From Alistipes sp. (GTDB lineage: Bacteria; Bacteroidota; Bacteroidia; Bacteroidales; Rikenellaceae), in NCBI GenBank assembly GCA_017647025.1, contig JAGCLL010000015.1, positions 1-32,119 of the forward strand: 32,119 nucleotides of DNA, written 5' to 3'. Positions 221-10,612 of the stretch are shown here, one piece after another (positions within the stretch are counted from its first letter, which is position 1; each line of letters starts with the position of its first letter). The notes beneath the pieces were generated by a model. It was not told the origin of the DNA and did not search any database. It saw only the letters and a list, made by a program, of their open reading frames with translations. The translations under genes were made by a program, and so were the position numbers.

Positions 221-295
221 GGGAGTTTAGCTCAGCTGGTTTAGAGCATCTGCCTTACAAGCAGAGGGTCGGCGGTTCGAATCCGTCAACTCCCA
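221..295 (+). tRNA. tRNA-Val (TAC)
   Basis: The acceptor strand GGGAGTT (221-227) pairs with AACTCCC (288-294), with discriminator A295. The anticodon loop CTTACAA (254-260) gives anticodon TAC at 256-258. CCA is not encoded. The last 16 bases of the gene plus the next five (280-300) are repeated perfectly at 501-521, on the far side of a structured element of about 200 bp. The real terminator only comes after that copy. Confidence 0.97.
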
Positions 296-300
296 CAAAA
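280..300 (+). repeat. 21 bp direct repeat, left copy (tRNA-Val 3' end)
   Basis: This copy starts in the T loop (AATCC...) and ends with ...CCCACAAAA five bases past the discriminator. It is identical to 501-521. The flanking bases differ (G279 versus C500, C301 versus T522), so the repeat is exactly 21 bp. It resembles an attachment site or target-site duplication at a tRNA 3' end. Confidence 0.95.
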
Positions 301-500
301 CAAACGAAGCAATGAGATGTCGAGCAATCGACATCTTTTTGTTTTCATATGCTTTGGCACAAACTTGTTTGTAAGCATAGGTATATGAAAACAAAAGAAG
401 TTGTGCAACAACTCATTGCGCAGTGAAGTTTTGTAAGGGCCCCTGCGGCGAGCAGAACGGAAAGGCGTTAAGCGGAGCGAGCAGAGCGAGCGCAGTAGCC
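301..500 (+). ncRNA. tRNA-linked structured element, copy 1 (tRNA-Val)
   Basis: This 200 bp non-coding segment is shared with 10391-10591. The most conserved parts are the ACAAACTTGTTTGT apex (359-372), GGGCCC followed by GCGGCGAGC (437-453) and GGAAAGGCGTTAA (459-471). Predicted helices are: P1 GCAATGAG 309-316 with 412-419; P2 GATGTCGA 316-323 with 328-335 around a GCAA loop; P3 GTTTTCATAT 341-350 with 383-392, with an inner ACAAA/TTTGT apex; P4 AGTTGT 399-404 with 408-413; P5 CTGC 443-446 with GCAG 452-455; P6 AACG 456-459 with CGTT 466-469. P1, P3, P4 and P5 differ in sequence from copy 2 but keep pairing. It should be transcribed with tRNA-Val if read-through occurs past P2, which is followed by TTTTT and looks like a terminator. 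Whether it acts as RNA, as a mobile element or both is unknown. I do not recognise it as a named family. Confidence 0.8.
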
Positions 501-521
501 AATCCGTCAACTCCCACAAAA
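501..521 (+). repeat. 21 bp direct repeat, right copy (duplicate tRNA-Val 3' end)
   Basis: Perfect copy of 280-300. It contains the 3' half of the T loop, the 3' T-stem strand, the 3' acceptor strand and the discriminator, but not the matching 5' strands, so it is not a tRNA by itself. It lies directly before the tRNA terminator. Recombination between the two copies would remove 221 bp and leave an intact tRNA-Val next to its terminator. Confidence 0.95.
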
Positions 522-523
522 TC

Positions 524-551
524 AAGACGACTTTTTAGTCGTCTTTTTTTT
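524..551 (+). terminator. Rho-independent terminator of the tRNA-Val unit
   Basis: Stem AAGACGACT (524-532), loop TTTT, stem AGTCGTCTT (537-545), then a T tract. The sequence is specific to this locus and differs from the terminator after the second element, so it is probably the original tRNA terminator. Confidence 0.9.
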
Positions 552-636
552 GTGTTCGTTGACGAATTCGGTCAGCGTGTTGCGCCTCGGCAGAGTTGTC
601 TGCGCTGTGTGAATCCGTGGTGGGGATTGGGTATGT

Positions 637-10298: not shown

Positions 10299-10385
10299 GG
10301 AGAGTTGGGTGAGTGGCTGAAACCAGCAGTTTGCTAAACTGCCGATATCGTAAGGTATCCACTGGTTCGAATCCAGTACTCTCCG
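10299..10385 (+). tRNA. tRNA-Ser (GCT)
   Basis: The acceptor strand GGAGAGT (10299-10305) pairs with ACTCTCC (10378-10384), with discriminator G10385. The anticodon stem GCAGT/ACTGC encloses loop TTGCTAA (10331-10337) with anticodon GCT at 10333-10335. The 87-base length reflects the long class II variable arm (10343-10360). CCA is not encoded. Its 3' end plus five bases (10370-10390) is duplicated at 10592-10612. Confidence 0.97.
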
Positions 10386-10390
10386 CAAAA
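10370..10390 (+). repeat. 21 bp direct repeat, left copy (tRNA-Ser 3' end)
   Basis: It begins at the same T-loop position (AATCC...) and ends with CAAAA at the same distance past the discriminator as the repeat at tRNA-Val. It is identical to 10592-10612. The inner bases are those of tRNA-Ser, not tRNA-Val. Confidence 0.95.
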
Positions 10391-10591
10391 CAAGAAACGA
10401 AGCAAGAAGATGTCGAAAGACATCTTCTTTGTTTATGCATATCATAGAACAAACTTGTTTGTGAGATGAAATGCATAAACAGAGATACAGTTGCGAAGCA
10501 ACTTCTTGCGTAGTGAATTGGTTGCAAGGGCCCCCGCGGCGAGCGGAATGGAAAGGCGTTAAACGAAGCAGATATTATCTGCGTAGTAGCC
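10391..10591 (+). ncRNA. tRNA-linked structured element, copy 2 (tRNA-Ser)
   Basis: This 201 bp segment is homologous to 301-500 along its whole length. Helices are: P1 GCAAGAAG 10402-10409 with CTTCTTGC 10502-10509; P2 GATGTC 10409-10414 with GACATC 10419-10424 around GAAA; P3 GTTTATGCAT 10431-10440 with 10471-10480 and an identical ACAAA-CTTG-TTTGT apex (10449-10462); P4 AGTTGC 10489-10494 with GCAACT 10498-10503; P5 CCGC 10534-10537 with GCGG 10543-10546 around a conserved GGCGA loop; P6 AATG 10547-10550 with CGTT 10557-10560 around GAAAGG. A further GCAGA/TCTGC hairpin lies at 10568-10582. P2 can extend to 11 bp (10404-10414 with 10419-10429), which would consume the 5' strand of P1, so the two pairings compete. 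No coding potential is seen. Confidence 0.8.
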
Positions 10592-10612
10592 AATCCAGTA
10601 CTCTCCGCAAAA
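10592..10612 (+). repeat. 21 bp direct repeat, right copy (duplicate tRNA-Ser 3' end)
   Basis: Perfect copy of 10370-10390, 222 bases downstream, directly before the terminator. The base before it is C, as in the tRNA-Val copy, and both are preceded by GTAGC. Confidence 0.95.

What the first reader, a model, noticed from the sequence alone, without database searches (positions are those of the whole stretch)
10370..10612. Second copy of the element at tRNA-Ser with the same repeat geometry
An independent tRNA of a different class carries the homologous element (201 bp) with a 21 bp direct repeat that starts at the same T-loop base and ends the same distance beyond the discriminator. The matching geometry at two loci rules out a chance duplication.
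Basis: seen in the sequence. Interest (0 to 1): 0.85.

Follow-up and report, generated by a model that had tools for sequence, protein, structure and literature searches.

The report
Folded repeats inserted in tRNA genes
A 222-base folded, gene-less DNA unit sits in the end of a serine tRNA gene and repeats the tRNA's tail, so the tRNA stays whole; related units sit in several other tRNA genes of related gut bacteria, and each holds strands that pair with the tRNA in which it lies.

Summary
It is one member of a family ("A") seen in 63 of 180 genomes of its genus and 0 of 88 other genomes of its family. All 78 of 97 core sites with a tRNA close upstream sit behind Ser, Val, His, Glu or Pro tRNAs with T-loop TTCGAAT. 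Occupied and empty tRNA-Val sites exist. The unit is best drawn from T-loop to T-loop. Its sense strand folds; two internal segments pair with the 3' end and trailer of its own tRNA; helix mismatches are mostly G.T, seldom A.C. The 21 bp is not fixed (6 of 46). Other families share the plan. IS200/IS605 and IS110 enzymes were found in none of the 63 carriers, reverse transcriptase in 19. Best reading: a gene-less insertion element using the T-loop, propagated through a folded strand by an unidentified enzyme. Mobility is inferred from comparison. Five paper searches found no description.

The parts
10299..10386 (+). tRNA-Ser (GCT), host gene of the unit
   Evidence: ARAGORN, Rfam RF00005
10370..10390 (+). 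left copy of the repeat: 3' end of tRNA-Ser from the T-loop, plus CAAAA
10370..10591 (+). family A unit, drawn T-loop to T-loop (222 bp)
10518..10525 (+). g2 strand (TTGGTTGC); its TTGC can pair with GCAA at 10385-10388; then two bulged bases 10526-10527 and GGG
   Evidence: sequence
10534..10546 (+). small hairpin CCGC-GGCGA-GCGG, covaries with CTGC..GCAG in other copies
   Evidence: helix 1
10549..10557 (+). g1 splint TGGA-AA-GGC: pairs with GCC at 10589-10591 and TCCA at 10594-10597, bridging the right junction
   Evidence: helix 2
10592..10612 (+). right copy of the repeat, followed by a terminator-like hairpin
221..296 (+). tRNA-Val (TAC), host gene of the second unit
280..500 (+). family A unit at tRNA-Val, T-loop to T-loop (221 bp); between the copies lies 301-500
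292..301 (+). CCC-ACAAAAC, last acceptor bases and trailer, pairs with g2
315..336 (+). hairpin 1 (terminator-like); the T tract behind it is part of hairpin 2
337..396 (+). hairpin 2, long stem capped by CAAACTTGTTTG
428..439 (+). g2 strand GTTTTGT-aa-GGG, complementary to 292-301
457..466 (+). g1 splint ACGGA-AA-GGC, pairs with GCC (498-500) and TCCGT (503-507)
501..521 (+). right copy at tRNA-Val, followed by the terminator that follows tRNA-Val directly at empty sites
551..606 (+). probable remnant of a family D unit; 557-570 (CGTTGACGAATTCG) resembles the antisense of the tRNA-Val 3' end
   Evidence: own tRNA ranks second of 12 here

Best explanation
The feature is one copy of a gene-less insertion element, about 220 bp, that occupies tRNA genes at the T-loop. 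The natural unit runs from the T-loop base of the tRNA (AATCC..) to GTAGCC just before the next AATCC. It thus brings a tRNA 3' half of its own, the tRNA stays whole, and the displaced original 3' half becomes the right-hand repeat. Shown: homologous units behind tRNAs of seven anticodons, occupied and empty sites, a conserved sense-strand fold, and internal strands (g1, g2) matched to the tRNA that carries them. Inferred: that the 3' half comes with the unit; that the unit moves as a folded single strand (RNA or DNA) with two arms side by side; that g1, which pairs across the junction of the unit's 3' end and the tRNA 3' half, works as a splint that aligns element end and target; that an enzyme supplied in trans joins it there. 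Not known: which enzyme, and whether the moving strand is RNA or DNA.
For: Distribution: 63 of 180 genus genomes, 0 of 88 others in the family (pattern with up to 2 mismatches); by covariance model 1 of 393 genomes drawn from the order, the own one (strict filters). Of 97 distinct core sites in the loci then held 78 have a tRNA within 1.5 kb upstream on the same strand, all 78 with T-loop TTCGAAT; one later locus has TTCGAGC (L224). Of the 19 others 2 are chance matches (L101, L135) and 13 have under 600 bases of held sequence upstream. Val loci: of 8 with tRNA-Asn upstream 2 are occupied, of 5 without it 2. The own unit at the Asn/Val locus is 93% like G076's unit at the other Val locus, while G076's Asn/Val locus is empty, and 76% like G080's unit at the Asn/Val locus. 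Trailer/g2 pairing: mean -12.05 kcal/mol against -8.04 +/- 0.29 for permuted partners, best of 10000 -9.08 (51 units). Core fold on 64 sites: 92.1% of cells paired, 11 of 19 pairs with double changes, covariation score above all 500 shuffles (pair types: 1 of 500 reached it); one g1/copy column pair occurs as GC 44, CG 7, UA 5, AU 3. Single mismatches inside helices: G.T 45, A.G 22, G.G 12, A.C 5 (41 units); hairpin 2 alone G.T 29, A.G 18, A.C 1 (36 units). In L060 the tRNA 5' strand pairs perfectly with the right copy and by one wobble with the present 3' half (one case). Family D has the same plan: among 12 antisense strands the own tRNA is the best partner in 10, second in 2.
Against: No element with an enzyme gene of its own was found. 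Y1 transposases are in 2 of 180 and IS110 recombinases in 9 of 180 genus genomes, none of them carriers; reverse transcriptases in 19 of the 63 carriers (counted by eye). Of 20 carriers searched G027 and G031 show only two tyrosine-recombinase matches each, plausibly the host Xer pair (not tested). Listed neighbours above 85% identity are all at the same tRNA type, so no recent jump between tRNA types was seen. Between nine pairs of close units the G.T excess is small: 28 G.T to 21 A.C, 25 to 12 without one decayed pair. The two Val loci of a genome share downstream sequence, so gene conversion could move a unit between them. In the covariation test one of the two outer g1 pairs fails in 25 of 64 sequences.
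Confidence: 0.5

Rival explanations
1. Miniature derivatives of integrative elements: a tyrosine integrase that crosses over in the T-loop (as phage Ms6 does) mobilises short att-flanked DNA in trans; the folding is incidental.
For: T-loop integration with a tRNA 3' end carried on the element is established for Ms6 (PMC1762012, abstract and passages); its 26-base core holds TTCGAATCC. A variable repeat end fits a crossover in the T-loop. All 20 carriers searched have tyrosine recombinases.
Against: Family A has GTAGCC, not TTCG, before AATCC at its right junction. Does not explain tRNA-matched g1 and g2, covariation or the G.T bias. G031, 98% complete, shows only two PF00589 matches; in the 20 genomes none lies within 7 kb of a listed core site on the same contig (compared by eye).
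Confidence: 0.17
2. No dedicated mobility: units arose once or a few times and were spread by homologous recombination between tRNA loci and strains, while replication template switching keeps the arms complementary.
For: Template switching can create and maintain hairpins (PMC8794818, title and start of abstract in a search listing). Shared flanks of the two Val loci. Near-identical units listed only at the same tRNA type. Small G.T excess between close units.
Against: Units at unlike tRNAs are about as similar as units at the same tRNA (mean 0.59 and 0.61). Template switching should leave G.T and A.C equal (my reasoning); seen is 45 to 5. Differently built families stop at the same T-loop.
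Confidence: 0.2
3. A cis-acting RNA: read-through transcripts of the tRNA fold so that the 3' end is held in g1/g2, controlling tRNA maturation or termination.
For: Sense-strand fold with G.U pairs, terminator-like hairpin 1, pairing that starts at the end of the acceptor strand.
Against: The right copy is shortened or decayed in 20 of 46, arrays of two or three units occur (7 tRNAs), and related genomes lack the unit at the same tRNA. Hairpin 1, if it terminates, would end most transcripts before g1 and g2 (inference).
Confidence: 0.13

Closest known systems
Integrative elements and phages with attB in the tRNA T-loop (e.g. mycobacteriophage Ms6)
   Same: Break point in the T-loop, tRNA 3' half present at both ends of the element
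   Different: About 220 bp, no gene, tRNAs of seven anticodons, internal strands complementary to the tRNA, conserved single-strand fold, arrays of unlike units
IS200/IS605, REP/RAYT elements
   Same: Single-strand fold; the GGC 5' of the second arm pairs with the element's last bases GCC, like the guide at the right end
   Different: No Y1 transposase found in any of the 63 carriers; pairing also reaches into the tRNA sequence; a tRNA 3' half is repeated
IS110 bridge RNA
   Same: A strand pairs with both element end and target sequence, and covaries with the target
   Different: No IS110 recombinase found in any of the 63 carriers; the guide lies in a gene-less unit and is complementary to the sense strand of the repeat beside it
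Miniature elements (MITEs)
   Same: Short, gene-less, several copies per genome
   Different: No terminal inverted repeats noticed, no autonomous partner found, sites at tRNA T-loops

Membership tests
tRNA T-loop integrative elements (tyrosine integrase) | break point at the T-loop with the tRNA 3' end repeated at the far end | tested here: met
   (26 of 46 units keep 16 or more bases of the repeat)
tRNA T-loop integrative elements (tyrosine integrase) | integrase gene in or beside the element | tested here: not met
   no PF00589 match within 7 kb of a listed core site on the same contig in 20 carriers; nearest about 7.2 kb in G027 (by eye; contig ends limit this)
tRNA T-loop integrative elements (tyrosine integrase) | overlap region identical at both junctions | tested here: not met
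   right junction GTAGCC|AATCC against TTCG|AATCC for family A; families B and D do keep TTCGA
IS200/IS605 or REP/RAYT | Y1 HUH transposase in the genome | tested here: not met
   PF01797 in 2 of 180 genus genomes, 0 of 63 carriers
IS200/IS605 or REP/RAYT | hairpin with a 5' guide pairing with the element end | tested here: inconclusive
   the GGC/GCC pairs hardly vary in 64 sites, so there is no covariation to test
IS110 bridge RNA | DEDD recombinase in the genome | tested here: not met
   PF01548 in 9 of 180, 0 of 63 carriers
IS110 bridge RNA | guide covaries with target | tested here: met
   g2/trailer and g1/copy
Retroelement | reverse transcriptase in carriers | tested here: not met
   PF00078 in 19 of 63 carriers, 61 of 180 overall
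Known RNA family | match to an Rfam model | tested here: not met
   only tRNA at gathering score; best other match E 0.12, far below its gathering score
Mobile element in general | observed excision or new insertion | not testable with these tools
   only occupied and empty sites in different genomes

The most novel reading that the evidence does not exclude
A new class of selfish elements, of several families, that colonise tRNA genes as two-arm folded strands: an internal splint pairs with the element's own 3' end and with the tRNA 3' half, so that nucleic acid and not protein chooses the target, the tRNA is kept whole in the same step, and units stack into arrays behind one tRNA.
Probability: 0.3. 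Interest if true: 0.9.

Novelty: new variant of a known kind. Interest (0 to 1): 0.7.

Why it matters
If right, tRNA genes are colonised not only by gene-bearing islands but by tiny folded units that recognise the tRNA by base pairing and leave it whole. It would be a natural, very small, target-matched insertion system, and would explain why the stretch behind many tRNA genes in these bacteria is filled with layered repeats.

Tried and rejected
IS200/IS605, IS110 and reverse transcriptase as mobilisers: not found in carriers or not enriched. Phage or plasmid carriage: the Val unit had no match; exact A and D patterns are in no viral contig. Fixed 21 bp target duplication: not borne out. Integron attC (GTTAARC motif) and group I or II introns: considered by eye only, dropped. 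Orthology of the Ser locus by the NfeD gene: of 30 loci only the own one showed a tRNA-Ser or a core beside it. A serine recombinase gene beside a unit in G051: its relatives were found at no other held locus (E up to 1e-4), and NCBIfam gave nothing above a cut-off. A paper on Haloquadratum (PMC3119063, passages) gave only ordinary prophages at tRNAs.

Rows dropped or chosen: one search took units within 165 bases of the tRNA and lost three without a recognisable right end (L072, L131, L133); one search left out units over 260 bases or over 93% alike; units over 245 bases, and its genome labels for named contigs are partly my inference from matching coordinates; one search used nine of the eleven pairs, which were picked for closeness and not shown to be orthologous (L075/L093 are different Ser tRNAs, L001/L109 are different Val loci); one search aligned 64 of the 89 sites listed, chosen by me; one search was given 14 of the 19 loci and could not read one (L236), the others left out being L230 (an occupied Val site), L234 and L235 (no whole tRNA) and L243, L244 (overlapping others); L233, counted as empty, has a core with 3 mismatches 279 bases further on; one search left out the tRNA-Lys row (L010) because its match lies in unrelated sequence. 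One search was replaced because its counting favoured G.U.

Full report
What is there. The window is contig 130 of a genome of 2.04 Mb in 219 contigs, itself unnamed. In a scan of named genomes 73 of 75 stretches with the core are titled Alistipes sp. or Rikenellaceae; where the title names a source it is a ruminant gut; the other two, L101 and L135, are from unrelated organisms and look like chance. tRNA-Ser(GCT) at 10299-10386 is followed by a unit that ends in a second copy of the tRNA 3' end; tRNA-Val at 221-296 has the same. A third copy of the same geometry is at tRNA-Glu. A covariance model finds four weaker sites in the genome: one behind tRNA-Ser(CGA) and two in tandem behind tRNA-His, and one without a recognised tRNA.

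Is it more than chance. Left parts of the two window copies score 56 against 2.9 +/- 5.0 for shuffles; the 29-base right parts only 6 against -1.4 +/- 2.3, largest 8. In the genus 63 of 180 genomes have the core, in the rest of the family 0 of 88. The covariance model matched 1 of 393 genomes drawn from the order, the own one (strict filters lose weak matches). Of 97 distinct core sites in the loci then held 78 lie within 1.5 kb behind a tRNA on the same strand: Ser 40, Val 12, His 12, Glu 11, Pro 3, all 78 with T-loop TTCGAAT. A later locus (L224) has TTCGAGC.

Extent of the unit. Over 46 units the exact repeat is 21 bases in 6, 16 or more in 26, and shorter in 20; its start is partly fixed by how units were cut. 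Past the tRNA the left trailer often differs from the right one, and at Val the right one is the trailer of empty sites. So the unit is best drawn from T-loop to T-loop. In L060 the present 3' half of the tRNA pairs with the 5' strand through one wobble and the right copy pairs perfectly: one case, also explained by one mutation.

Occupied and empty sites. Among Val loci with tRNA-Asn upstream 2 of 8 are occupied, among five without it 2 (for loci left out see Tried and rejected). At empty sites the tRNA end runs straight into the terminator that follows the right copy elsewhere. The own unit is 93% like the unit at the other Val locus of G076, whose Asn/Val locus is empty; G080 has a different unit (76%) at the Asn/Val locus. 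The two Val loci of a genome share downstream sequence, so gene conversion between them is not excluded.

Fold. Each of 14 printed units folds with arms of the same general kind: in most, an outer helix of trailer and g2 holds three hairpins, then a small hairpin, then a second arm closed by g1; a few fold otherwise, such as L043 and L055. Permuting partners lowers trailer/g2 pairing from -12.05 to -8.04 +/- 0.29 kcal/mol. On 64 sites 92.1% of cells pair, 11 of 19 pairs have double changes, the covariation score is above all 500 shuffles (the count of pair types was reached by 1), and sliding destroys it; the outermost g1 pair fails in 25 of 64. The g1 strand changes with the tRNA: Val ACGGA/TCCGT, Ser TGGA/TCCA, Glu GGGGA/TCCCC, Pro CAGGA/TCCTG. 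Single mismatches within helices are G.T 45, A.G 22, G.G 12, A.C 5 in 41 units; in hairpin 2 of 36 units G.T 29, A.G 18, A.C 1. This points to folding of the sense strand; it does not tell RNA from single-stranded DNA, since G.T is also a mild mismatch in DNA (recalled), and I did not control for strand bias of mutation. Between nine pairs of close units the excess is small, 28 to 21. The pressure may act mostly on copies that move; that contrast rests on unlike counting rules and is weak.

A superfamily. Behind the same tRNAs lie differently built units: B (GAGCCGATA..TATCGGCTC, ending GCCG|TTCGAATCC), C (ending GGCC or AGTC|AATCC) and D, in which the tRNA 3' half is followed, after a terminator-like hairpin, by its antisense, and which when complete ends CTGCGACCG|TTCGA (five B and D units were folded). 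For 12 D antisense strands of the own genome the own tRNA is the best partner in 10 and second in 2. The D pattern is in 35 of 180 genus genomes, some without A, such as G024 and G025. A remnant of D follows the Val unit in the window. The names A to D are mine.

Mechanism. Family A's g1 can pair on one side with the unit's last bases and on the other with the tRNA 3' half, so it bridges the junction like a splint; this the sequence and one search show. That it aligns the element with its target during insertion is inference. Known enzymes do not fit: Y1 in 0 of 63 carriers, IS110 in 0 of 63, reverse transcriptase in 19 of 63. Tyrosine recombinases are in all 20 carriers searched, but G027 and G031 show only two matches each, which may be the host Xer pair (not tested).

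Compared with the known. T-loop integration with a tRNA 3' end on the element is known for phage Ms6 (PMC1762012, abstract and passages). Guides that pair with element end and target are known for bridge RNAs (PMC11208160, passages) and for IS200/IS605 (PMC6006769, passages). Template switching as a maker of hairpins is a rival for part of the evidence (PMC8794818, search listing only). Structured RNAs of the human gut, some in Alistipes, have been listed (PMC8040213, passages); the passages name none behind tRNA genes. Five searches aimed at such elements showed none in their listings; most subscription journals and preprints are not in that library.

Verdict. Mobility is supported by comparison only, and the enzyme is unknown.

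Noticed in passing
G000:C34 27584-27658 and 68169 (L006, L235): A whole tRNA-Val, with a tyrosine recombinase match at C34:28463, and about 40 kb further a tRNA-Val 3' fragment starting near the anticodon: probably an integrated island using the anticodon-side site.
   Followed up: partly
L278 15266-16156 (G051:C16): A serine recombinase-like gene directly behind a family A unit at tRNA-Ser(GGA); the unit's right end recurs about 13 kb away without a tRNA, with TonB-receptor and transporter genes between.
   Followed up: partly
L207, L208, L209, L212 (G051, G062, G092): Here the stretch after the right junction is complementary, by eye, first to g2 and then to the tRNA 3' end, a further elaboration of the pairing scheme.
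   Followed up: no
L258 1378-1690 (G000:C193): A and C type ends in tandem beside a sequence like the tRNA-Arg(TCT) 3' end and its terminator, but no whole tRNA: probably a tRNA remnant.
   Followed up: no
L010 (G000:C102, tRNA-Lys): A copy of the tRNA-Lys 3' half preceded by GGCTTTGCCA, like a worn family B end.
   Followed up: no
family A hairpin 2 and family D: Long hairpins of both families are often capped by a palindromic CAAANNNNTTTG, role unknown (by eye).
   Followed up: no
both arms of family A: A loop CGRAGC / GCGNAG occurs in both arms of many units, as if one protein or contact read both (by eye).
   Followed up: no
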